From: Thermodesulfomicrobium sp. WS
GTDB taxonomy: Bacteria > Desulfobacterota > Desulfovibrionia > Desulfovibrionales > Desulfomicrobiaceae
Reading direction: 5' to 3'
Assembly: GCF_027925145.1 (NCBI RefSeq)
Contig: NZ_AP027130.1
Span: 1,860,001 to 1,924,000, forward strand
DNA: 64,000 nt
Shown here: one piece after another, positions 3,474 to 22,555 of the stretch
Position numbering within the stretch: position 1 is the first letter of the stretch
How the letters are laid out: each line of letters opens with the position of its first letter
Notes under the pieces: model-generated
Seen by the model: only the letters and a program-made list of their open reading frames with translations
Told to the model about the DNA's origin: nothing
Database searches by the model: none
Program-made: the position numbers and the translations under genes

Positions 3474-3803
3474 CGCCGCACCTCCATCGAAAACGGTAGC
3501 GTCCGCTACCTCAAGGCGCAGGCCGAGGCAACCCAAAACCCCAATGCGTGGAGTCCGATTTCCCGATGTCGTGGACACCGCGCCGCGTATTCCGCTAGAA
3601 GCACGCCGCATGAACCCAAAGGCGGGAGAACCCACCATGCTCCACGCCAGGAGCCCAAGTGCACCGGACGCCCACGGCCCACTGCAACGGCCATAGCCGC
3701 ACCCCGCGACAACGCAGGGCGCCCCCAAAGATGCCGCAGGCTCAGGTTTTGAGCCCGAGGAGGTGGTAGGGGACTCGCCATGAATCTCTCCAAGGAGCCC
3801 GTT
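3474..3803. other. Divergent intergenic region between rfbC and the cas operon
   Basis: About 330 bp with no convincing gene; open frames here are extensions or shadows. It contains two small inverted repeats: GGTAGCG-TC-CGCTACC at 3495-3510, just upstream of the rfbC ribosome-binding site, and GGCTCA-GGTTT-TGAGCC at 3739-3755, upstream of cas3. It must hold the promoters of both divergent units, but I see no clear -35/-10 pair. Confidence 0.5.
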
Positions 3804-6248
3804 ATGCTATTTGCATGTTTTGACGAGATGTTCCAAGGCGCCACAGGCTGCCGACCATATCCTTATCAAAGCCATCTGGCCCAGCGCGCATCATGGCCCG
3901 ACTTACTCGAAGCGCCCACCGGCGCCGGCAAGACCGAAGCTATCGTGCTCGCCTGGCTGTGGCGCCGGCGCTTTGCAGAGAGCCAAACGCGCCAGCAAAC
4001 GCCGCGCCGGCTGGTCTATTGCCTGCCGATGCGCGTGCTGGTGGAGCAAACCGAAGCGCGCGTGCGACGTTGGATGGACAATTTGAAACTGGCCGAGGAA
4101 ATTGGGGTCCATGTGCTGATGGGCGGCGAAACGGACAACGACTGGGATTTATATCCTGAGCGCGAGGCCGTGCTCATCGGCACGCAGGATATGCTGCTCT
4201 CGCGCGCCCTCAACCGCGGCTACGCGCTGGGCCGCGCCCATTGGCCCCTGCCGTATGGCCTCCTCAACAATGATTGCCTGTGGGTGTTCGACGAAGTGCA
4301 GCTCATGGGCAGCGGCCTGGCCACCAGCGCACAGCTGGCCGCCTTCCGCGAGAAGTTTGGCGTGTGGGGCCAGAGCCCTACGCTGTGGGTCTCCGCCACC
4401 CTGCGCCCGGAATGGCTGGCGACAGTGGACTTCCGCCCCAAGGTGGCCAGCCTGGATCTGCATGGACTGATGCATGACGAGTGGCAAGACGCAACGAGCG
4501 ATCTTGCCCGGCGCTTGAATGCCTGCAAGGCATTGAGCAAAGCCCGCAACATGGCCGATGACCCAAAGAAGCTGGCCGAGGAAATCCACAGCGCGCACCA
4601 GAATGGTCAATTGACACTGGTGGTGGTGAACACCGTGAAGAAAGCAGCGGCGCTGTACGAGGCGCTCAGGGCGGCAACTCGGCCAACGCCGCGCAAAGGC
4701 AAAAAGACCGCCGAGCAACCGCCATCTGAGCCTGCGCCGGATCTGCTCCTGTTGCACTCACGCTTCCGTCCCCCCGAACGAAAGGCCAAACTGCAACAAC
4801 TGTTGGAGATGGAAAAGAGCGGCGGCATTGTCATCGCTACGCAGGTGGTGGAAGCCGGCGTGGACATTTCGGCGCGCACACTGTTCACTGAACTCTCGCC
4901 GTGGGCCTCGTTCGTCCAGCGGGTGGGGCGGTGCAACCGCAAGGGCGAGTTCGAGCAGGCGGAGGTTTTCTGGGTGGATGTGGACACCGGGAAGAAAGGC
5001 GGCGCCGCGCCCTACACGCCCGAAGAACTGGAGGCCGCCCGCAAGGAGCTCAAGGCGCTGAGCGAGGTTGGCCCACGTGCCCTGCACGACTATCTAGCCG
5101 AGCTGCCGGAGAAGCGGCTGACGGCCCTGTATCCCTACGCCGCCGAACACGTCATCCGCCGCCGCACCGTCGAGGAACTGTTCGACACGACACCCGATCT
5201 GACCGGCGCTGATATCGATATCTCGCTCTATATCCGCGAGAATGATGAACACGATGTGCAGGTGTTCTGGCGGGACTGGGAGGGTGACACCCCCAATCGC
5301 CCAGAGCCACAGCCAGAGCCAGGCCGCGATGAACTCTGCCCCACACCGCTCAACAAGGAAACACGCGACTGGTTGAGCAAAAACGGCTGGCGCTGGGACT
5401 TCCTCGAGGATCGCTGGACGCGCGCCGAGCGGATCACCCCCGGCCAGATTTACCTGCTCCATGCAAGCGTTGGTGGCTACTCTGCCGAGAAAGGCTTCGA
5501 CATAAGCCTTGCCGCCCCCGTCACGCCGCTGGGTAGCGTAGGCCAGAAGCCAGAAGGCAACGAGAGCGATCCCTGGTCTACCGAGCGCAAAATCTGGCAG
5601 ACCATCGCGGCGCACACCAATCAGGTGGTGGAGGAGATGGACGCCATCGTTCAGGCCTTGGGCAACCTGCTGACAGCAGAAGAAATGCGCCAACTGCGCC
5701 ACGCCGCTCGCTGGCACGATTGGGGCAAGGCCTACTACGTCTTTCAAAACGCGCTTACCGCCACTGCCCAACCGGATTTTGACTTGCCAGATGCACTGCA
5801 CTGCTGGGGCAAGTCCGCGCGTCGTAGCGCACCCTACGAACACCCCCATTTCCGCCATGAACTTGCCAGTGCGCTGGCCATGTTGGCCCAGGGCCATCCT
5901 GATCTCGCCTGGTATCTCGTCGCCGCTCATCATGGGAAGGTGCGCGTCTCCATTCGCTCGCTGCCCGGCGAAAAGCCCGCGCCCGACGGCAAACGCTTTG
6001 CGCGCGGCGTGTGGGAGGGCGACCGGATGCCGCCCGTGAAGCTGGGTGGCGGCGTGACCGCGCCTGAAGTCACCTTCTCGCTCGCCCCGATGGAACTCGG
6101 TCTCAGCGAGGACGGCCGGCCCAGTTGGGCCGAGCGCGTACTGCAACTGCTGGAAAATTACGGCCCGTTCCGTCTGGCTTACCTCGAAGCGCTGTTGTGC
6201 GCCGCCGACCGCCGCGCCAGTGCCAAAGCCCACCCGGAGGTCTCCTAA
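3804..6248 (+). CDS. cas3: Cas3, type I-G helicase-nuclease with C-terminal HD domain
   Basis: About 814 residues. The N-terminal superfamily 2 helicase has Walker A (APTGAGKT, residues 37-44), a DEVQ motif near residue 163, SATLRPEW, and motif VI QRVGRCNR near residue 371. The C-terminal third is the HD nuclease: WHDWGK near residue 638, an HFRHE segment, and AAHHGK near 708. HD after helicase is the layout expected of the I-G (I-U) subtype, the reverse of most Cas3 proteins. The protein unwinds and degrades invader DNA marked by the crRNA complex. I prefer the ATG at 3804 (AAGGAG, spacing 6); an in-frame ATG at 3780 would add 8 residues. Its TAA stop overlaps the next ATG (TAATG), so it is translationally coupled to csx17. 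Confidence 0.93.
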   Translation: MLFACFDEMFQGATGCRPYPYQSHLAQRASWPDLLEAPTGAGKTEAIVLAWLWRRRFAESQTRQQTPRRLVYCLPMRVLVEQTEARVRRWMDNLKLAEEIGVHVLMGGETDNDWDLYPEREAVLIGTQDMLLSRALNRGYALGRAHWPLPYGLLNNDCLWVFDEVQLMGSGLATSAQLAAFREKFGVWGQSPTLWVSATLRPEWLATVDFRPKVASLDLHGLMHDEWQDATSDLARRLNACKALSKARNMADDPKKLAEEIHSAHQNGQLTLVVVNTVKKAAALYEALRAATRPTPRKGKKTAEQPPSEPAPDLLLLHSRFRPPERKAKLQQLLEMEKSGGIVIATQVVEAGVDISARTLFTELSPWASFVQRVGRCNRKGEFEQAEVFWVDVDTGKKGGAAPYTPEELEAARKELKALSEVGPRALHDYLAELPEKRLTALYPYAAEHVIRRRTVEELFDTTPDLTGADIDISLYIRENDEHDVQVFWRDWEGDTPNRPEPQPEPGRDELCPTPLNKETRDWLSKNGWRWDFLEDRWTRAERITPGQIYLLHASVGGYSAEKGFDISLAAPVTPLGSVGQKPEGNESDPWSTERKIWQTIAAHTNQVVEEMDAIVQALGNLLTAEEMRQLRHAARWHDWGKAYYVFQNALTATAQPDFDLPDALHCWGKSARRSAPYEHPHFRHELASALAMLAQGHPDLAWYLVAAHHGKVRVSIRSLPGEKPAPDGKRFARGVWEGDRMPPVKLGGGVTAPEVTFSLAPMELGLSEDGRPSWAERVLQLLENYGPFRLAYLEALLCAADRRASAKAHPEVS

Positions 6249-8434
6249 TGACTAACAAAATTCGCTTGCCCGGCTGCCGACCTGAGCCATTGATGTCGTA
6301 CCTCAAAGCGCTGGGCGTATTCCGCCTGGTGGCCGAGCAGGCCGATCCAGCCGCCCGTGCCGCCTGGGAGGGAGATACCTTCGTCCTGCACACATCACTG
6401 GGCGAGGCGGAGCTGTTGGCTTTCTTTCAGCAACGCTACACGCCCACGCCGATTGTGGCGCCATGGGCAGGTGGCAGCGGCTTTTTCGAAAAGGATAACA
6501 AGCAGGCTGTAGAAGCAATTTCGAAGAGTAAATCGCCTCGTCTCGCCCCTTACCGGCAAATCATCGCCCAGGTGCGCAGCATCTTGAAGGAGCTGAAACA
6601 GACCAGCAAGCCACAAAATGAAGCGAAAGATCGCCTGCTCCGGCGCTATCGCCGCGAACTGCCGGATGAGTTCGTAGCCTGGATGGATAGCGCGATTGTT
6701 CTCCAAAACGAGGGGCAGAAGTTCCCTCCCATTCTTGGCAGCGGCGGCAACGATGGCCGTCTTGATTTCACCCAAAACCTGATGCAACGCTTGGTGGAAA
6801 TCGGTTTTGCCGGTGAAGCGCTGGCGCCCGAGTCAAAAGTCTGGCTCAGAAATGCACTGTTTGGCGAGCCGGCCAGAGATTTGATGTCGGCTGCCGTCGG
6901 ACAATTTGACCCCGGGCGCGCAGGCGGCCCCAACGCCGGACAAGGCATGGAGGGCATTTCTCAGGTCAACCCCTGGGAGTACGTGCTCATGCTGGAGGGG
7001 GCGCTGCTGATGGCCGGCTCGGTCACACGTCGGTTGGATGCCCACGCCGGGGAGAAGGGCTCTTTTCCGTTCACCGTGAATATGACCGCAGTCGGCAACG
7101 GCTCTCTCAACCCAGGTGAAGACTCACGCGGTGAAGTCTGGCTCCCTCTCTGGAACAACCCGGCGCAACTCAACGAAGTCCGTCAAGTCTTTGCCGAAGG
7201 GCGCGCGCAGATCGGCAAGCGCCAGGCGCGCAACGCTGTGGACTTTGCCCGTGCCGTCGCCGGGCTGGGCGTTGACCGGGGTCTATCTGGATTTGCTCGC
7301 TATGGCTTTCTCAAGCGGAGCGGCAAGGCGTATCTCGCAGTGTCACTGGGAGGCTTTGACACGCATGTCCAAGCGGAACACACCGGCTTGCTTGTGGAGC
7401 TCGATGACTGGCTCGACCGCTTCCGGCGCGCCTGCGCCGGCGACAACGTCCAGCCGCGCTTCAGCGCTGCCCTGCGCCGCCTCGACGAAGCCATCTTCGA
7501 TTACTGCCGCTTCGGCGGCGCGATGCGCTTCGGCGAAATTGTGCGCGCGTTGGGGCAATGCGAGCACGCCCTGGCCCTGAATGCGCAGAAACCCGGCATC
7601 ATCGGCCAGAGCAAGTACGCGGTCAGCCCTGTTCCATTGCTTTCCAAAACATGGCTGACTGCGGCGCAGGAAGACTCGCCAGAGTTCCGCATCGCGCTGG
7701 CCCTGGCGGCCATGCGCGCCACCGGCGGCGTAGGCGCGCTGCGCACCAACCTCGAAGTCGTCTCGCCTACCAAATGGGGTTGGACGTGGGCCGAGCCACA
7801 AGATCGCTATGCCACCGTGTGGGGCGGCACTGACCTGCCACGCAACTTGCAAGCCGTGCTGGAACGCCGTTTGATGGACGCAACCCGTTTGGGGTTGAAG
7901 GGTTTGCCGCTCGAATCGCGCTTCTCGGCCGACGCAGACGACATCACGGCCTTCCTCGCCGGTCAGGTGGACGACGATCGCCTGACGGAATGGCTGTGGG
8001 GGCTGATGTTGATTGATGTGCAGAACGCCAGTTGGGAAGACCTCACCCTCACCCGGTCGGCCCCAACACCACAACCCATCCCACGCGCTTACGCACTGCT
8101 CAAGTTGTTGTTCCTGCCGGAATATCACGCACTGAGGACAGAGGGCGATAAACCTGTCAAACCGGAACCGAGCACCCTCACGCACCTGCGCGCCGGCCGC
8201 CTGAACGCCGCTTGCGAAACGGCTGCGCGGCGCCTGCGCGCTTCCGGCTATGTGCCCATGCCCGGCCCCATGTCGGGGCGCGGCGCGCGGCAGATGGACT
8301 ATACCCTGCCCGGCCCGATGCTGGCGCGCTTGCCGGCAGCGCTCAGCATTCCAATTTCCCAACCACAGCGGCTCGCGTCACTGGTTTTGCGTGCCGCTGT
8401 GGCAAAGGACGTCTTCGAAGAGGCAACGTGGTAA
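6248..8434 (+). CDS. csx17: Csx17/Cas8-type large subunit of type I-G effector
   Basis: 728-residue protein starting at the ATG that overlaps the cas3 stop, with GGAGGT six bases before it. The N-terminus (LPGCRPEPLMSYLKALGVFR) is the characteristic opening of the Csx17 family, the large Cas8-like subunit of type I-G complexes. In the family this subunit is expected to recognise the PAM and help open target DNA. I see no known enzymatic motif, as expected. The position between cas3 and csb1 is the standard gene order. The assignment rests on N-terminal resemblance, size and operon place. Confidence 0.85.
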   Translation: MTNKIRLPGCRPEPLMSYLKALGVFRLVAEQADPAARAAWEGDTFVLHTSLGEAELLAFFQQRYTPTPIVAPWAGGSGFFEKDNKQAVEAISKSKSPRLAPYRQIIAQVRSILKELKQTSKPQNEAKDRLLRRYRRELPDEFVAWMDSAIVLQNEGQKFPPILGSGGNDGRLDFTQNLMQRLVEIGFAGEALAPESKVWLRNALFGEPARDLMSAAVGQFDPGRAGGPNAGQGMEGISQVNPWEYVLMLEGALLMAGSVTRRLDAHAGEKGSFPFTVNMTAVGNGSLNPGEDSRGEVWLPLWNNPAQLNEVRQVFAEGRAQIGKRQARNAVDFARAVAGLGVDRGLSGFARYGFLKRSGKAYLAVSLGGFDTHVQAEHTGLLVELDDWLDRFRRACAGDNVQPRFSAALRRLDEAIFDYCRFGGAMRFGEIVRALGQCEHALALNAQKPGIIGQSKYAVSPVPLLSKTWLTAAQEDSPEFRIALALAAMRATGGVGALRTNLEVVSPTKWGWTWAEPQDRYATVWGGTDLPRNLQAVLERRLMDATRLGLKGLPLESRFSADADDITAFLAGQVDDDRLTEWLWGLMLIDVQNASWEDLTLTRSAPTPQPIPRAYALLKLLFLPEYHALRTEGDKPVKPEPSTLTHLRAGRLNAACETAARRLRASGYVPMPGPMSGRGARQMDYTLPGPMLARLPAALSIPISQPQRLASLVLRAAVAKDVFEEATW

Positions 8435-9508
<1,074 letters not shown>

Positions 9509-9570
9509 TACGTCCCCCTGCGGCATTGGCGAACACCACTGCACCCACCCCTGAAAAAGGATCGATCATC

Positions 9571-11049
9571 ATGGCAGTCACGCTTGCGCTCTCCTTTCCC
9601 AACGGACGCTATCACGCCACCGGCTGGAGGCGGCACGTCAACGAGGCCACTCCCGACTGGCCACCAGCGCCATGGCGTCTGCTGCGCGCCTTCGTCGCGG
9701 TGTGGAAGCGTACCTTGGCGAGCGATACGTTGGTAAACGCGCACCTCCCTACCGCGCTGGCCAAACTCACCGCGCCGCCTCTCTACAAACTGCCGCCGGC
9801 CACCCTCGGCCACACCCGGCACTACCTGACCCAGAAAATAAAAGGCGATGCAGACCTCGTCTTCGACGGATTCATCGCCCTCACCACCGATGCCAAATTG
9901 GGAATATCCTGGCCCGAAGCGGACCTCACGCCTGCCGAACAGGAGGCGCTGGGGCGCGTGCTGAGCCGGCTGAACTACCTGGGCCGCGCCGAAACCTGGT
10001 GTGTGGCGCGGCTCGCCAACTGGGATGCGTTAAACGGCATGCCCTGCGCCTGGGTAGATGCAGAGACCGGCGAAATTCATGGCCCCACCGCCGGACGCAC
10101 CGAAGCCGTACGCGTGCTCTGCCTCGACCCGCACAACTGGAATCAATGGAGCTACGGCCGCAAAGCGCACCAACCCGATCCCCAATGGAATCTGTTGGCC
10201 GAGACCGCCGACCTGCACGCCGAAGGCTGGTCTGACCCTCCCGGCTCGCGCTGGGTGACCTACCTGCGGCCAGCGAACGCCCTGACGCCGCCACCCCCGG
10301 CCCACCAGCGCCGAGTGCGCGCAGAAAACCGCCCATGCTTGCTGCGCTTCGCCCTTGACGGCCCGGTTCTCCCGCGCGTCACCGAGACGGTGTATGTGGC
10401 CGAACTGGCGCGCCGGCGCGTGCAAGGCATCTTCGGTAAGTTGTTCGATGGCGCGGCCTCAGACCTCTTCTCCGGCAAACAGACCAATGGAACACCCGCC
10501 ACCGAACATCACCATGCGTTCTTCCTGCCTGTCGATGAGGATGGCGATGGCAAACTGGAACACCTCATCCTGTATGCTGCCAAAGGGTTCGGTCCTCATG
10601 AACTGCGCGCGCTGGACGCATGGCGCAAAACACGTGGCCCCGGCGGCATAGAGATGCATGTCGTCTGGCTGGGTGCACAGGAGAAGGCCCCCGCCGCCCG
10701 GCGCTGGCGCTCGGCCACGCCCTTCATTGTCACACGGCATTACAAAAAATATGGCTCCAAGCGGGATACATTTCCCCGAGAACAGCTCCCGGAAATGAAC
10801 TTACGCGAGGAGCTCGAACGGAGAGGCTTGCCAGCCCCGGTGCGCATCGAAACCGTAGAGGCTCTCTCCCTGAACGGACGCACACTCCCCTGGCGAAACT
10901 TTCGCCAGCAGCGCGTGCTAGGTAATGGCCGGCGTGGCAACGACTTCGGCAAGGGCTTCGAGATTGAGTTTGCCGAACCGGTGCCCGGGCCACTGGCCCT
11001 GGGCTACGCCTGCCACTTCGGCCTCGGCCTGTTTGTGCCCGCAGACTAG
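9571..11049 (+). CDS. csb2: Csb2, Cas5-Cas6 fusion of type I-G
   Basis: 492-residue protein of the Csb2 (GSU0054) family, in which Cas5-like and Cas6-like RAMP domains are joined. The start MAVTLALSFPNGRYHATGW and the following PPAPWRLLRAFVAVWKR are diagnostic. The C-terminal half has a histidine cluster (ATEHHHAFFLPVDEDGDG), a candidate for the crRNA-processing site. It ends with a glycine-rich RAMP loop, GNGRRGNDFGKGF, and GYACHFGLGLFVP. The protein should cut the hairpin repeat transcript and stay bound to the crRNA. The open frame extends 62 codons upstream into csb1, but the ATG at 9571 gives the family N-terminus. It is followed after 10 bp by cas4-cas1. Confidence 0.9.
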   Translation: MAVTLALSFPNGRYHATGWRRHVNEATPDWPPAPWRLLRAFVAVWKRTLASDTLVNAHLPTALAKLTAPPLYKLPPATLGHTRHYLTQKIKGDADLVFDGFIALTTDAKLGISWPEADLTPAEQEALGRVLSRLNYLGRAETWCVARLANWDALNGMPCAWVDAETGEIHGPTAGRTEAVRVLCLDPHNWNQWSYGRKAHQPDPQWNLLAETADLHAEGWSDPPGSRWVTYLRPANALTPPPPAHQRRVRAENRPCLLRFALDGPVLPRVTETVYVAELARRRVQGIFGKLFDGAASDLFSGKQTNGTPATEHHHAFFLPVDEDGDGKLEHLILYAAKGFGPHELRALDAWRKTRGPGGIEMHVVWLGAQEKAPAARRWRSATPFIVTRHYKKYGSKRDTFPREQLPEMNLREELERRGLPAPVRIETVEALSLNGRTLPWRNFRQQRVLGNGRRGNDFGKGFEIEFAEPVPGPLALGYACHFGLGLFVPAD

Positions 11050-11059
11050 GGGGCCCGCC

Positions 11060-12733
11060 ATGTCCGACGACGTGCGTCCTGGAGCGCCAGGACTCATCCC
11101 GGCGCGCATGCTCAACGAGTTCGTCTACTGCCCCCGTCTGGCCTATCTGGAATGGGTGCAGGGCGAGTGGGCGGATTCGGCGGATACGGTGGAAGGAAAG
11201 GGAGTGCACAGCCGCGTGGATGCGGCTCCGGGCAACCTCCCAAAGGCCGATGCCGAAAACCAAAGCATCCATGCCCGCTCGGTGTGGCTTTCCTCGGAAT
11301 CTCTGGGCATCACCGCCCGGCTGGATATCGTCGAGGCCGAAGGGCACGAAGCGACACCGGTGGACTACAAACGCGGCAAGCGCCCCCATACGGCCCGAGG
11401 GGCCTACGACGCAGAACGGGTACAGCTCTGCGCGCAAGGGCTGTTGCTGCGCGAACACGGCTACCAATGTGCAGCGGGGATCCTGTATTATGCCGCCTCC
11501 CGGGAGCGGGTACGCATCCCTCTGGATGACGAACTCATCGCCTTGACCCAAGCCGCCATCGCTGGCCTTCGTCAAATGGCCCAGTCCACGACTATCCCTC
11601 CGCCGCTGGAAGACAGTCCCAAATGTCCGCGCTGCTCACTGGCAGGCATCTGTCTTCCCGACGAAACGCGGTTCTTGGGAGGAAACGGTCTTATCCCCCG
11701 ACCTATTGCCGCCGCAGACCCAGCGGCCCTGCCGCTCTATGTCCAATCCCCCCGGGCGTGGCTCCGTAAGGACGGCGAACGCATCATCGTGGAAGAAGAC
11801 AAAACGCCGGTGGCCGAAGCCCGGCTGGGAGAAGTCTCGCAAGTGGTCCTCTTTGGCACCGCGCAGCTGTCCTCTCCGCTCCTCCACGAGCTTTTACGCC
11901 GAGAGATCCCCGTCTCATGGCATACCTACGGTGGATGGTTCGTGGGGCACACCACAGGTCTCGGGCACCGCAACGTGGAAACTCGCACCGCACAATACCG
12001 GGCCAGCTTCGACGCCTCAACCTGTCTGCGCCTTGCTCGAGGTTGGATTGCCTCCAAGATCGCCAATTGCCGCACCTTGCTGCGCCGCAACTGGCGATCC
12101 GAGACCTCGACTTCTGCGCAAGTATTGCGGACCCTCCAAGACCTCATGCGCAAGGTCCGCCGAACGACTTCCCTGCAAGAACTCTTAGGGATGGAAGGGA
12201 CAGCAGCCCGGCTCTATTTCCAGCACTTCACCTGCATGCTGCGGCCAGAAACCTTGGTCGCGCCATTCGACTTCATGGGCCGAAACCGCAGGCCGCCTCG
12301 GGACCCCGTCAATGCCCTCCTGTCCTTTGCCTACGCCATGCTCACACGCCAATGGCACATCACGCTCTCAGCCGTCGGTCTGGACCCCTACCGAGGCTTC
12401 TACCACCAACCCCGCTTCGGTCGCCCCGCCCTAGCCTTGGATATGATGGAACCCTTCCGCCCGCTCATCGCAGATTCATCCGTACTCATGGCCCTCAACA
12501 ACGGCGAGGTACACCCAACGGACTTTATTGTTTCTGCCCATGGATGTGCCCTCACGGACAATGGCCGCAAACGATTCATCGCCACCTTGGAACGCCGTAT
12601 GCAACAAGAAGTGACGCACCCCATCTTCGGATACCGCATCAGCTACCGACGTCTTCTGGAGGTGCAGGCCCGCCTTCTCATCCGTTTTCTGACAGGCGAA
12701 ATTCCGCAATATCCAAACTTTCTTACTCGATAG
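11060..12733 (+). CDS. cas4-cas1: Cas4-Cas1 fusion, spacer acquisition nuclease-integrase
   Basis: 557 residues. The N-terminal ~200 residues are a Cas4 RecB-like nuclease: a cysteine near the start (FVYCPRLAYLEW), the active-site segment TPVDYKRGK, and a C-terminal cysteine cluster CPRCSLAGIC near residues 188-197 for the Fe-S cluster. From about residue 220 it is Cas1, with the likely metal ligands Glu in GMEGTAARLY (~377), His in GFYHQPRFGRP (~450) and acidic residues in DMMEPFRP (~465). In the Geobacter I-G system this fusion is known to select and trim PAM-containing prespacers before integration. ATG at 11060 follows GGGGG; the longer upstream frame overlaps csb2 and is ignored. Confidence 0.94.
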   Translation: MSDDVRPGAPGLIPARMLNEFVYCPRLAYLEWVQGEWADSADTVEGKGVHSRVDAAPGNLPKADAENQSIHARSVWLSSESLGITARLDIVEAEGHEATPVDYKRGKRPHTARGAYDAERVQLCAQGLLLREHGYQCAAGILYYAASRERVRIPLDDELIALTQAAIAGLRQMAQSTTIPPPLEDSPKCPRCSLAGICLPDETRFLGGNGLIPRPIAAADPAALPLYVQSPRAWLRKDGERIIVEEDKTPVAEARLGEVSQVVLFGTAQLSSPLLHELLRREIPVSWHTYGGWFVGHTTGLGHRNVETRTAQYRASFDASTCLRLARGWIASKIANCRTLLRRNWRSETSTSAQVLRTLQDLMRKVRRTTSLQELLGMEGTAARLYFQHFTCMLRPETLVAPFDFMGRNRRPPRDPVNALLSFAYAMLTRQWHITLSAVGLDPYRGFYHQPRFGRPALALDMMEPFRPLIADSSVLMALNNGEVHPTDFIVSAHGCALTDNGRKRFIATLERRMQQEVTHPIFGYRISYRRLLEVQARLLIRFLTGEIPQYPNFLTR

Positions 12734-12736
12734 GCC

Positions 12737-13024
12737 ATGGAACATCTCTTCATTGTCACCTATGATATCACCAATCCCAGGCGCTGGCGCCGTGTGTTCC
12801 GCATTATGAATGGGTTTGGGCAGTGGCTCCAGCTCTCCGTATTTCAATGTCGGCTCGATCGTCGGCGGGAAGTAGAGCTCCGAGCGGCCCTGCAAACAGC
12901 CATCCGCCAACAGGAGGACCACGTGCTCATCATCGACCTCGGGCCTGCGGAACGGATTCGCACCCAGATCAGCAGCCTAGGCAAGGAGTTCACCCCCATT
13001 GAGCGCAAGCCGATTATCGTATAG
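12737..13024 (+). CDS. cas2: Cas2, spacer-acquisition subunit
   Basis: 95-residue ferredoxin-fold protein of normal Cas2 length. It opens with LFIVTYDITNPRRWRRVF, which holds the conserved Asp after the first beta strand, and has SVFQCRLDRR in the middle. It bridges two Cas1 dimers in the integrase complex. It starts 3 bp after the cas4-cas1 stop and is the last gene before the leader, as expected for an active adaptation module. Confidence 0.95.
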   Translation: MEHLFIVTYDITNPRRWRRVFRIMNGFGQWLQLSVFQCRLDRRREVELRAALQTAIRQQEDHVLIIDLGPAERIRTQISSLGKEFTPIERKPIIV

Positions 13025-13228: not shown

Positions 13229-16200
13229 GCATTTCCGAGGCACACGCCTCGGCCCCATTGAAGCATGGTCGCGGGCGCGGCCAAGGCGGATCTGCTCGCG
13301 GCATTTCCGAGGCACACGCCTCGGCCCCATTGAAGCGGTTTATTTGGCAGTGCCGCTATACTAGGAGGTCGCTAGCATTTCCGAGGCACACGCCTCGGCC
13401 CCATTGAAGCAGCGTCAGGCTGCTCGCGGACATCGAGCAGCGCCTGGCATTTCCGAGGCACACGCCTCGGCCCCATTGAAGCCTGGTATCAGGCAGGGGT
13501 GGTCCCCTCCGGGCTGCATGCATTTCCGAGGCACACGCCTCGGCCCCATTGAAGCCTTTTCTTCGTTTTCGTCCCCCCACCACCTCCTTAGGCATTTCCG
13601 AGGCACACGCCTCGGCCCCATTGAAGCTCTCCACATGCCCGGGGATTACCGACCGCGCCCTCCGCATTTCCGAGGCACACGCCTCGGCCCCATTGAAGCA
13701 AATCCCTGGGCAACACAATCCAATCCCCGCGAGGGGTTGCATTTCCGAGGCACACGCCTCGGCCCCATTGAAGCCTTCCTTACCTGCTGAAACGTGGCAA
13801 GTTTCGGGCATAGCATTTCCGAGGCACACGCCTCGGCCCCATTGAAGCACAGGCTGACGCCAACAAGCTAGCAGAAAGCCGACGAGCATTTCCGAGGCAC
13901 ACGCCTCGGCCCCATTGAAGCCCGCATTCTTTCCCACCAGCGCCACCCCCCTCCCTCGCATTTCCGAGGCACACGCCTCGGCCCCATTGAAGCGTCGCGG
14001 CGTCCACGCCCCATTGCTCCATGGGGAGCGCATTTCCGAGGCACACGCCTCGGCCCCATTGAAGCACTTCTTCGGCGTCTTCAAGGTCATCAACGATAAT
14101 CAAGCATTTCCGAGGCACACGCCTCGGCCCCATTGAAGCTGCCGCATCCTCCGCAGAAGTGACATGAGGCCAGGCGCATTTCCGAGGCACACGCCTCGGC
14201 CCCATTGAAGCGGTAAAAATCGCAGAATACGAATCTTTGGACGTTCAACGCATTTCCGAGGCACACGCCTCGGCCCCATTGAAGCTGTTGGTCACGGAAG
14301 AAAAGATAATACTTCCCCCCCCGCATTTCCGAGGCACACGCCTCGGCCCCATTGAAGCATTTGTTCAGAATGCGGGTATATTTGCCACATCTCAGAGCAT
14401 TTCCGAGGCACACGCCTCGGCCCCATTGAAGCTCTTCCGCATCGTACCAAGGAAGACGGACAAACAGGCATTTCCGAGGCACACGCCTCGGCCCCATTGA
14501 AGCGGTGGGTTTGGTCAAGTTGTTTCCTTCCTCAGAGGGCATTTCCGAGGCACACGCCTCGGCCCCATTGAAGCATGCGATAAATGCAAGTTGCCAAACG
14601 CCAATCACAAGCGCATTTCCGAGGCACACGCCTCGGCCCCATTGAAGCGGGTTCTGCGAGCGATGTGGCGACTTGGTGCCAACGTGCATTTCCGAGGCAC
14701 ACGCCTCGGCCCCATTGAAGCTTGAACATCCTGCTTTTGTAATAGCGAGGATCTGGGCGCATTTCCGAGGCACACGCCTCGGCCCCATTGAAGCCTGCGG
14801 GAATGTACTATTCCCAATTGATTGTGGCTACGCATTTCCGAGGCACACGCCTCGGCCCCATTGAAGCTACGATTCGTGGTCTCTGCATGAATACGGGCTC
14901 GCTGCATTTCCGAGGCACACGCCTCGGCCCCATTGAAGCTGTTGGTCACGAAAAAAAAGATAATAACCCCCCCCTACCTGCATTTCCGAGGCACACGCCT
15001 CGGCCCCATTGAAGCTACGGAGGGAATGGCTTCCCAAACAGCTAGTAATGGTGGCGCTGCATTTCCGAGGCACACGCCTCGGCCCCATTGAAGCCGGTCG
15101 CGGCAAACTCGAGATGCCCAACCGGCATCGGGCATTTCCGAGGCACACGCCTCGGCCCCATTGAAGCGTGCCTTCCGCCGGCTCTCTGGCCGCATCAGCG
15201 GGCGCATTTCCGAGGCACACGCCTCGGCCCCATTGAAGCGGTGGCCTTCGCCCGGGCCTTGGTGGCAGCCGTCACGGCATTTCCGAGGCACACGCCTCGG
15301 CCCCATTGAAGCAGGCCATCCACCATCTGCCACACATTGCCCCACAGGCGCATTTCCGAGGCACACGCCTCGGCCCCATTGAAGCGACACGGCTCGCGCA
15401 AATCAAGATCGTCGCTGAGCAGTAGCATTTCCGAGGCACACGCCTCGGCCCCATTGAAGCACCGCAGTGGTGTCATTGTTGGACGCGCTGGGCGAGTGCA
15501 TTTCCGAGGCACACGCCTCGGCCCCATTGAAGCGCGAGAAACGCGGGCTGCCCAACGGCGTGCATGATGCGCATTTCCGAGGCACACGCCTCGGCCCCAT
15601 TGAAGCGGTCAGCTGTCGCGCCCCGGCCACCGGACTTTGCACCCCGCATTTCCGAGGCACACGCCTCGGCCCCATTGAAGCGCTGGTGCGGAGGCTATGG
15701 GTGCGGAGGCTGCGGGCGGCATTTCCGAGGCACACGCCTCGGCCCCATTGAAGCCCCGTGGGCAGCTGCGTGAGATGAGTGCCGCCGGTGCATTTCCGAG
15801 GCACACGCCTCGGCCCCATTGAAGCGTGTTATGGTGCAAGGCCCCGCCCTGTGCGGGGCCTTGCATTTCCGAGGCACACGCCTCGGCCCCATTGAAGCAA
15901 GTCCTACGCCATGCGCGACTGGGCGCGCTTTGCCGAGCATTTCCGAGGCACACGCCTCGGCCCCATTGAAGCTCACTCTCGTAGATGCGGCCCGCGAGAA
16001 CGGACGCCACGGCATTTCCGAGGCACACGCCTCGGCCCCATTGAAGCGCCGCTGTGCTCGTCTCTTGTGCCAGCGCGGTCATCGCATTTCCGAGGCACAC
16101 GCCTCGGCCCCATTGAAGCACGGACAATCAGTTTGTTGTTGTCCGGCACAGGGACTCGCATTTCCGAGGCACACGCCTCGGCCCCATTGAAGCGATAAAA

Positions 16201-17067
16201 AGACCACTAGCGCACGCTTGCCGCTGTATGGCATTTCCGAGGCACACGCCTCGGCCCCATTGAAGCGCTCAAACTAGCTTGCCAGGGGTTCCCCCTGGAC
16301 CCCGCATTTCCGAGGCACACGCCTCGGCCCCATTGAAGCGTCTTGCGTCGCACGCACAAGTCTCACGCCGCGCGACGCATTTCCGAGGCACACGCCTCGG
16401 CCCCATTGAAGCAGGCGGGCCTGCTTCACGACCAGCAAGCGGTCAACCAGGGCATTTCCGAGGCACACGCCTCGGCCCCATTGAAGCACGCCGCGCAGGC
16501 GCAGCTTGCGAGCAGGCGGGTTAGGCATTTCCGAGGCACACGCCTCGGCCCCATTGAAGCCTATCCGCGTTTTTACAGACCTCGGCGGGACGAGCGGGCA
16601 TTTCCGAGGCACACGCCTCGGCCCCATTGAAGCTCCTAACCTGGGGCTCACCCCCATTGCACACACGATGCATTTCCGAGGCACACGCCTCGGCCCCATT
16701 GAAGCACGTGCAGGACGGCTATATCGTGCCTTCCTATACGGGGCATTTCCGAGGCACACGCCTCGGCCCCATTGAAGCATGGAGCACCCCGGCGTGCGAG
16801 TAGTGTCGGAGCAGCGCATTTCCGAGGCACACGCCTCGGCCCCATTGAAGCAGTAGCCCGAAGACCGATCCCACCACCGATCCCGCGCATTTCCGAGGCA
16901 CACGCCTCGGCCCCATTGAAGCTTTGGGATGGCGTTGCGGTTGGTCTTACCTGCGCAGCGCATTTCCGAGGCACACGCCTCGGCCCCATTGAAGCGGCTG
17001 CTCGCGACTCGATGCGCAGCAGCCCCAGGCGGCATTTCCGAGGCACACGCCTCGGCCCATGTAAACA
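13229..17067 (+). CRISPR. Type I-G CRISPR array, 53 repeats and 52 spacers
   Basis: The 36-nt direct repeat begins GCATTTCCGAGGC and ends GGCCCCATTGAAGC. It carries the hairpin CCGAGGC-ACAC-GCCTCGG, the expected Csb2 processing stem, and leaves ATTGAAGC as part of the crRNA 5' handle. Repeat starts run from 13229, 13301, 13375 and so on to 17032, at spacings of 71-79 bp; spacers are 35-43 nt, mostly 36-38. The first 52 repeats look identical. The last (17032) keeps about 27 bases and then diverges (ATGTAAAC), the usual mark of the leader-distal end. Spacer 15 (14286-14322) and spacer 24 (14940-14979) are near-duplicates. Long reading frames through the array are repeat translations, not genes. 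Confidence 0.98.
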
Positions 17068-20657: not shown

Positions 20658-22226
20658 CTATGCCACCTCCCAGCCCACGATCTGGCGTTTGGCCGTGCTG
20701 AATTCCACCCCCACCTCCACGACCCGCGCTACTGCTGCCTTGCCCCGGTAGGCCGCGGCGTAGCCCTTTTCCTGGATCTGCCGCAGGGCCTCGCCTGTGG
20801 GGGTGTCGCCGTCGATGACCTTGAACTCGAAGATCCACACCACTGCCCCGGCGATCACCACCAGGTCCAACCGCCCCGGGGTGCAGATGCGCTCCGGGAT
20901 GGTCATCACCCCAAGGCCCGCCAGGTGGCTATAGAACACGCTGGCAAAATAACCTTCGTACCGGGCCATGGGGTTTTTGCGGTACCAGTCCGCGGGAATG
21001 CCGGCAAAGAGGCTGCGCATGTGCTCGCCCAGGCCGTGGGCGTCGCCCTCCTTGAGCATGGTGGTGAGGGCAAAGCTCGGGGCGTGCGGAAGCTCGGGCA
21101 CCAAGCCCCGCACCAGGGCGCGGTTGAGGGCCATGCGCACCTCGCGGTTGGGAAGACCCAGCTCGTACTCCACCCCGTCTTCGCTGCGGTGCACGCGGGT
21201 GATGGTGACGTAGCCCGTCTGCCAAAGCAGGGCCTCAGGGGCGATGGCCTCCACGTCAAAGGCCGAAAGCAGGGCGTCGTCGGCGTACAGGCGCTCGAGA
21301 CGCGGGGTGAAGAACTGATGGCGCGTGAGCCACTCCACGAGAAACGTGGGGGTGGCGGTCTCGAACCACCAGGCGCGAAATTCCCGTTGGCGCAGGAGCA
21401 GCAGCACATCGAACGGGTTGTAGACACTCTCTTCGCTTCCCCAGCGGTAGCCGTTGTACCAGGCGCGCACGGCATCGCGATCAAGGGCGCGGTCTTCCTT
21501 GGCGGCAGCGGTAAACTCCGGGCCGAAGACCGCATCCAGATCGTCTTCGGTATAGCCGCAGATCGTCGCGTAGCGCTCATCCACGGTGATGTCGTTGAGG
21601 TTGTTGAGCCCGGAAAAGAGACTCACCTTGCTGAACTTGGACACCCCAGTCAAAAACACGAAGCGCAGGTCCGCATCCCGGCCCTTGAGCACCGAGTAGA
21701 GGTTGCGCAGGCCCTCGCGCATGGCCCGCGCCGTGTCCGGATCGGTGAGGTTGTCGAGAATGGGTTTGTCGTACTCGTCGATGAGCACCACGGTGCGCTC
21801 GCCCAAACGCTCGGCTGCGCCAGTGATGAGCTCGCCGAAGCTCCCCGGGATGTCCTCCAGGTCGCAAAGCGTCATGCCGAATCGCTGCGCATGTTCGTGC
21901 AGTTGGCGGCGGATGCTGCGATCAAGCTCTTCGCGGCGCTCAAGCCGCCCCTCGGCAAAGGAGAGCCGGATCACCGGATGGCGCTTCTCCCAATCCCAAT
22001 GATTTTCCAAATAAAGGCCAGTGAAGAGCGCACGGTTTGCCGCAAAGGCCTCGGCCAGGGTATCGAGGAAGAGGGATTTGCCGAAGCGCCGCGGCCGGGA
22101 GAGGAAGTAGTAGCCGCCGTTCTCGGCCAGGTGCGCCACGAACGGCGTTTTGTCCACGTAATAGCAGTTTTCCTGGCGGATCTTGGCAAAAGTCTGGATG
22201 CCGATGGGCAGTTTCTTGCGCTCCAT
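20658..22226 (-). CDS. AAA-like ATPase with C-terminal PD-(D/E)XK nuclease-like domain
   Basis: 522 residues. The N-terminal AAA-ATPase-like domain opens with LPIGIQTFAKIRQENCYYVD, has a P-loop-like SRPRRFGKSLFLD and a Walker B-like VVLIDEYDKPI. The C-terminal DUF1703-type domain carries RLDLVV and, after one strand, WIFEFK, the D...ExK nuclease signature. The family is common in Bacteroidetes and deltaproteobacteria, often in many copies. Its function is unproven; mobile-element or defence roles have been proposed. I chose the ATG at 22224-22226 (GGAGG, spacing 5) over one four codons upstream. Confidence 0.85.
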   Translation of the reverse strand: MERKKLPIGIQTFAKIRQENCYYVDKTPFVAHLAENGGYYFLSRPRRFGKSLFLDTLAEAFAANRALFTGLYLENHWDWEKRHPVIRLSFAEGRLERREELDRSIRRQLHEHAQRFGMTLCDLEDIPGSFGELITGAAERLGERTVVLIDEYDKPILDNLTDPDTARAMREGLRNLYSVLKGRDADLRFVFLTGVSKFSKVSLFSGLNNLNDITVDERYATICGYTEDDLDAVFGPEFTAAAKEDRALDRDAVRAWYNGYRWGSEESVYNPFDVLLLLRQREFRAWWFETATPTFLVEWLTRHQFFTPRLERLYADDALLSAFDVEAIAPEALLWQTGYVTITRVHRSEDGVEYELGLPNREVRMALNRALVRGLVPELPHAPSFALTTMLKEGDAHGLGEHMRSLFAGIPADWYRKNPMARYEGYFASVFYSHLAGLGVMTIPERICTPGRLDLVVIAGAVVWIFEFKVIDGDTPTGEALRQIQEKGYAAAYRGKAAVARVVEVGVEFSTAKRQIVGWEVA

Positions 22227-22555
22227 GGAAACCTCCATGCCGGAAAGGGAGACGTTTGTTGTGTACCCACGGGGGCACGGGAAGTCAAAACACCGCTCCC
22301 CAGCGATACGGATGGTTGAAAAAAGAGTTTCTCCGAATGTTCTCGTTGCCGAGAGAAAATGCGCTGCGGAAAGTGGCTCTCAAGACGGAAAGAGAAGGGG
22401 CGCCAAAGCGAAACCCCAACGATGCTGCGATCCATATCGAAAAATAAACGAAGGCGGACCGCACACCGTCCGCCTTCCTGATCTTGATGCACCACAAAGC
22501 GCCACACAACGCTCCCTAGGTCGCTCCCCAAGGCGGTGCGCTGTACCTTCGTCCC
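22227..22555. other. Intergenic region between chemoreceptor and AAA/PD-(D/E)XK gene
   Basis: About 329 bp without a gene. It contains the terminator of the chemoreceptor gene (22438-22477). The stretch 22240-22437, which must hold the promoter of the downstream minus-strand gene, shows no clear promoter or riboswitch to me. Confidence 0.5.
22438..22477 (-). terminator. Intrinsic terminator of the chemoreceptor gene
   Basis: A ten-base-pair hairpin, GAAGGCGGAC and GTCCGCCTTC around an eight-base loop (plus 22450-22477), is followed on the minus strand by GTTTATTTTTCG. It lies about 80 bp beyond the stop codon at 22556. Confidence 0.85.

What the first reader, a model, noticed from the sequence alone, without database searches (positions are those of the whole stretch)
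14286..14979. Two near-identical spacers (15 and 24) with the same seed but diverged tails
Spacer 15 (14286-14322) and spacer 24 (14940-14979) both begin TGTTGGTCACG and then read AAAAGATAATA with two substitutions between; after that they differ by a short indel before a C-run. They start at the same register, so they were taken from the same protospacer position in two related phages, or one is a re-acquisition after escape. This is not array duplication, since neighbouring spacers differ and bases changed. The identical part is the predicted seed.
Basis: seen in the sequence. Interest (0 to 1): 0.6.

Follow-up and report, generated by a model that had tools for sequence, protein, structure and literature searches.

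The report
Twin CRISPR spacers from related invaders
A bacterial CRISPR memory array holds two nearly identical entries that were almost certainly captured, at different times, from the same spot in two related viruses or mobile elements; this is a real but ordinary trace of repeated infection.

Summary
Spacers 15 (14286-14322, 37 nt) and 24 (14940-14979, 40 nt) share an identical 11-nt start and 24 of their first 26 bases, then diverge. Their alignment score is 26; the next best of the 51 spacers' pairs scores 14, and the best in 60 shuffled sets 15. They lie in a 53-repeat type I-G array beside a complete cas gene set. Different lengths, different tails and unrelated neighbours argue against array duplication. 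Two independent acquisitions at the same PAM-side position in homologous but diverged invaders is the best reading. The 'escape' variant is not supported: the seed is intact and all seven differences are PAM-distal. No indel is needed: ungapped, one reverse-strand frame reads VGGGYYLFFRDQ versus GGKYYLFFRDQ with two synonymous changes, like coding divergence. No protospacer was found in the host genome or the viral, genome, phage and plasmid collections, so PAM and target homology remain untested. Similar same-register twins occur in other arrays of the same order and near-identical spacers are published for type I-G (PMC12915315). Extra: spacers 12-25 form a low-G+C block, one of which probably targets a phage terminase.

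The parts
14286..14322 (+). Spacer 15 (37 nt), the younger twin
14940..14979 (+). Spacer 24 (40 nt), the older twin; 24/26 identical over the PAM-side 26 nt
13229..17067 (+). CRISPR array: 52 perfect 36-nt repeats GCATTTCCGAGGCACACGCCTCGGCCCCATTGAAGC plus a degenerate terminal repeat at 17032-17067; the only array with this repeat in the genome
13025..13228 (+). Probable leader (between cas2 and first repeat); the terminal repeat decays at the opposite end, so spacer 1 is youngest
   Evidence: inference
3780..6248 (+). cas3g (TIGR02621)
6242..8434 (+). csx17/cas8g (TIGR04113)
8492..9508 (+). csb1/cas7g (TIGR02570)
9571..11049 (+). csb2/cas5-6 (TIGR02165)
10925..12733 (+). cas4/cas1 fusion (NF049935, 831 bits, curated cut-off 560); the true start probably lies inside this ORF
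12737..13024 (+). cas2 (TIGR01573)
14066..15058 (+). Low-G+C block of spacers 12-25 (mean 0.49, against 0.63 and 0.65 on either side), which contains both twins

Best explanation
Spacers 15 and 24 are two independent captures by the Cas4/1-Cas2 adaptation machinery of this type I-G system. Both were taken at the same PAM-anchored position in the same gene of two related but diverged mobile elements, most likely phages. Spacer 24 was inserted first, and after eight further spacers the host met a relative and took spacer 15. The PAM end is cut precisely, so both begin at the same base; the other end is trimmed loosely, so lengths are 37 and 40. The crRNAs would share the seed. Spacer 24's crRNA would pair with the spacer-15 target imperfectly, so the second capture restored full matching and may have been helped by priming. 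Shown here: the sequences, register, lengths, array position and non-chance similarity. Inferred: the homologous targets, the shared PAM, the time order and the function.
For: Non-chance similarity anchored at the repeat-adjacent (PAM) end, with score 26 against a shuffled maximum of 15. Different lengths and tails. No other copy in the genome. Complete type I-G cas genes with an intact Cas4/1 fusion. The literature places the PAM end next to the repeat end ATTGAAGC and shows Cas4 cutting the PAM end and Cas1 trimming the other end without sequence preference (PMC10504553). Type I-G uses a TTN PAM and flips out every sixth base of the guide (PMC9638904), so the difference at position 12 should be tolerated. 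Ungapped, reverse-strand frame 2 reads VGGGYYLFFRDQ and GGKYYLFFRDQ with two synonymous Phe changes. Same-register twins, including a pair differing at two positions (L061 spacers 55/130), occur in arrays of other genomes of the same order. Near-identical spacers in B. lactis type I-E and I-G arrays are published (PMC12915315). Both twins lie in one low-G+C block, consistent with one group of invaders.
Against: No protospacer was found in any collection, so target homology and the PAM are unproven. The coding-frame argument rests on only two synonymous changes, and some frame out of six would show that fairly often by chance.
Confidence: 0.86

Rival explanations
1. Re-acquisition after escape: one phage lineage mutated its protospacer to evade spacer 24, and the host took the mutated site again as spacer 15.
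For: Time order (spacer 24 older) and identical register.
Against: The seed is unchanged, and seven PAM-distal differences, two of them possibly synonymous, look like long divergence between relatives. A PAM change would have hindered capture at the same site.
Confidence: 0.06
2. Both sites are copies of a repeated or hypervariable element within one mobile element (for example a dispersed repeat or a slippage-prone homopolymer locus), sampled twice.
For: S24 contains an A8 and a C8 run, and the variation sits in and beside homopolymers.
Against: No such element was found in any collection, and a gap-free coding alignment explains the data without slippage.
Confidence: 0.05
3. Duplication of a repeat-spacer unit within the array, followed by mutation.
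For: Sequence similarity only.
Against: Neighbouring spacers are unrelated, all 52 repeats are identical while the spacers differ at 7 of 37 positions, and a 3-nt length difference with a new tail is not expected from point mutation.
Confidence: 0.02
4. Chance or low-complexity similarity.
For: Both contain A and C runs.
Against: The first 11 bases are of ordinary complexity and identical; score 26 against a maximum of 15 in shuffles that keep the same base content.
Confidence: 0.01

Closest known systems
Near-identical spacers within type I-E and one type I-G array of Bifidobacterium animalis subsp. lactis (PMC12915315)
   Same: Spacers in one array that differ by a few nucleotides, at adjacent or distant positions
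   Different: Different bacterium; our pair also differs in length and in a longer PAM-distal stretch
Same-register twin spacers in L061 (55/99/130, 92/141) and L059 (6/14), arrays of other genomes of the same order with type I-C-like repeats
   Same: Same start next to the repeat, lengths differing by 1-2 nt, one pair with two substitutions (positions 5 and 14)
   Different: Type I-C-like repeats, closer identity between the twins
Type I-G CRISPR-Cas adaptation with the Cas4/1 fusion (Geobacter sulfurreducens, Methanosarcina barkeri; PMC10504553)
   Different: PAM of the present system not measured

Membership tests
[quoted passage not shown]
   All four above the curated NCBIfam cut-offs
[quoted passage not shown]
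   NF049935, 831 bits against a cut-off of 560; cas2 35 against 24.5
[quoted passage not shown]
   36-nt repeat; spacers 35-43, mode 37
[quoted passage not shown]
   No protospacer found
Independent same-site acquisitions | Shared start at the PAM end, unlike tails or lengths | tested here: met
Independent same-site acquisitions | Homologous protospacers with the same PAM in related elements | tested here: inconclusive
   No protospacer in the host, IMG/VR, GTDB, phage or plasmid collections
Array duplication | Copied unit with the same length and copied neighbours | tested here: not met
   Lengths 37 and 40; neighbours unrelated

The most novel reading that the evidence does not exclude
Priming by spacer 24 against a diverged relative led to renewed capture at exactly the same PAM site, so that type I-G arrays refresh decaying memories in place ('updating' of a spacer) more often than random sampling predicts.
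Probability: 0.07. Interest if true: 0.5.

Novelty: new member of a known kind. Interest (0 to 1): 0.17.

Why it matters
It is a clean natural record of a host meeting relatives of the same invader at least twice, with both captures at one site. If many such pairs were collected, they could show whether CRISPR adaptation favours hotspots or refreshes old spacers. As a single pair without a known target it is ordinary.

Tried and rejected
Nucleotide and codon-degenerate patterns of the shared part in IMG/VR, GTDB and 348 genomes of the order gave only unrelated or chance hits: the ORFs differ outside the pattern, and the reversed control also rings. BLAST against phages and plasmids gave no match, or E about 6 (one search held both twins joined by Ns, and each was then searched alone against phages; only spacer 15 was searched against plasmids). 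The best of these, an Achromobacter phage helicase (25 nt, 88%), is a chance-level hit and reads in the other strand's frame. Phage contigs related to a terminase matched by spacer 12 were searched for the twins' motif, without result. Slippage and duplication explanations were considered and put low.

Full report
What is there. The window carries a complete type I-G locus: cas3g, csx17, csb1, csb2, a cas4/cas1 fusion and cas2 at 3780-13024, all above the curated cut-offs. It is followed by an array of 52 perfect 36-nt repeats and one decayed terminal repeat at 13229-17067. It is the only array with this repeat in the single-contig 2.36-Mb genome. The decayed repeat is at the right end and the leader-like region lies next to cas2, so spacer 1 is the youngest and spacer 24 is older than spacer 15 (inference from array anatomy). 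The repeat ends in ATTGAAGC; in a studied type I-G system that end adjoins the PAM end of the spacer (PMC10504553), so the shared starts of the two spacers are their PAM ends.

The observation. Spacer 15 (14286-14322) and spacer 24 (14940-14979) have 24 of their first 26 bases in common. Their local alignment score is 26; the next best pair of the array scores 14, and the highest value in 60 shuffled versions of the array is 15. The shared 26-mer has no other copy in the genome, even with three mismatches. Without a gap the differences are at 12, 15, 27, 28, 29, 36 and 37.

Indel or not. With a gap, both tails contain C8; without one, the reverse strand in one frame reads VGGGYYLFFRDQ (spacer 24) and GGKYYLFFRDQ (spacer 15), with the changes at 12 and 15 silent (TTC/TTT) and the rest confined to two codons. 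This makes an ordinary protein-coding target in two relatives plausible, though two silent changes are weak evidence. Because both spacers end near the C-run, the data cannot decide between the two alignments.

Interpretation. Duplication in the array is excluded in practice: neighbours are unrelated, lengths are 37 and 40, tails differ, and all full repeats are identical. Type I-G Cas4/1 cuts the PAM end precisely and Cas1 trims the other end without sequence preference (PMC10504553), which fits the common start and unlike ends. Escape is unlikely as the cause of the differences: the seed is intact, and position 12 is one of the sixth bases that the type I-G backbone flips out (PMC9638904). 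Spacer 24 would therefore mismatch the spacer-15 target mainly at 15, 27-29 and 36-37. Whether it still interferes, primes or fails cannot be told from sequence.

How unusual. In 13 other arrays of genomes of the same order, fetched around Cas1 hits, three hold near-identical spacers (L059, L061, L065). In L061, spacers 55, 99 and 130 start in the same register; 55 and 99 are identical but for length, and 130 differs at positions 5 and 14. L059 spacers 6 and 14 differ only in length. These have type I-C-like repeats. Near-identical spacers in type I-E and I-G arrays of Bifidobacterium are published (PMC12915315). The phenomenon is therefore known and not rare in relatives.

Targets. No protospacer was found in the host genome, IMG/VR, GTDB genomes, 348 genomes of the order, phages or plasmids (spacer 15 only). 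Spacers 12-25, which include both twins, form a block of low G+C (mean 0.49, against 0.63 and 0.65 on the two sides; none of 20,000 permutations reached this; the block length was chosen after seeing the data). Spacer 12 reads LIIVDDLEDAEE on the reverse strand and matches the terminase large subunit gene of IMG/VR contig L069 at 30 of 38 bases (the contig was found with a pattern from this spacer, so the number is biased upward). The terminase has relatives in other phage contigs and in a Desulfofustis phage. This suggests phages as the source of the block, but the three bases before the L069 site are not a TTN PAM (CAG) and the homologue is distant. None of these contigs holds the twins' motif.

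Verdict. A correct observation with a largely correct, ordinary explanation: two captures at one site in related invaders. The escape version is not supported, and target homology and PAM remain to be shown.

Noticed in passing
14066-15058 (spacers 12-25): Contiguous block of low-G+C spacers (mean 0.49) inside a G+C-rich array (0.63-0.65), as if the host met a different group of invaders for a time.
   Followed up: partly
14066-14103 (spacer 12): Reverse strand encodes LIIVDDLEDAEE, matching the presumed Walker B region of a phage terminase large subunit (L069:3414-4988, minus strand; 30/38 nt).
   Followed up: partly
14575-14685 and 14359-14396 (spacers 19, 20, 16): Three spacers of the low-G+C block can be read as zinc-ribbon-like peptides (CDKCKLPNANHK, GFCERCGDLVPT, ICSECGYICHIS).
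   Followed up: no
15826-15862 (spacer 36): Spacer contains a perfect G+C-rich hairpin (AAGGCCCCGC-CCTGT-GCGGGGCCTT), like an intrinsic terminator of the invader.
   Followed up: no
15016-15058 (spacer 25): Unusually long spacer (43 nt; mode 37), directly after the long spacer 24 (40 nt).
   Followed up: no
L061 (array of another genome of the order): Very long array (167 repeats) with several same-register repeated spacers and two pairs that match as reverse complements (23/56, 40/73); useful for testing hotspot or primed acquisition.
   Followed up: no
20658-22238 (minus strand): 526-aa ORF with a GGYYFLSRPRRFGKS motif resembling, by eye, the AAA-ATPase-like/PD-(D/E)XK nuclease family; no NCBIfam match.
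   Followed up: no
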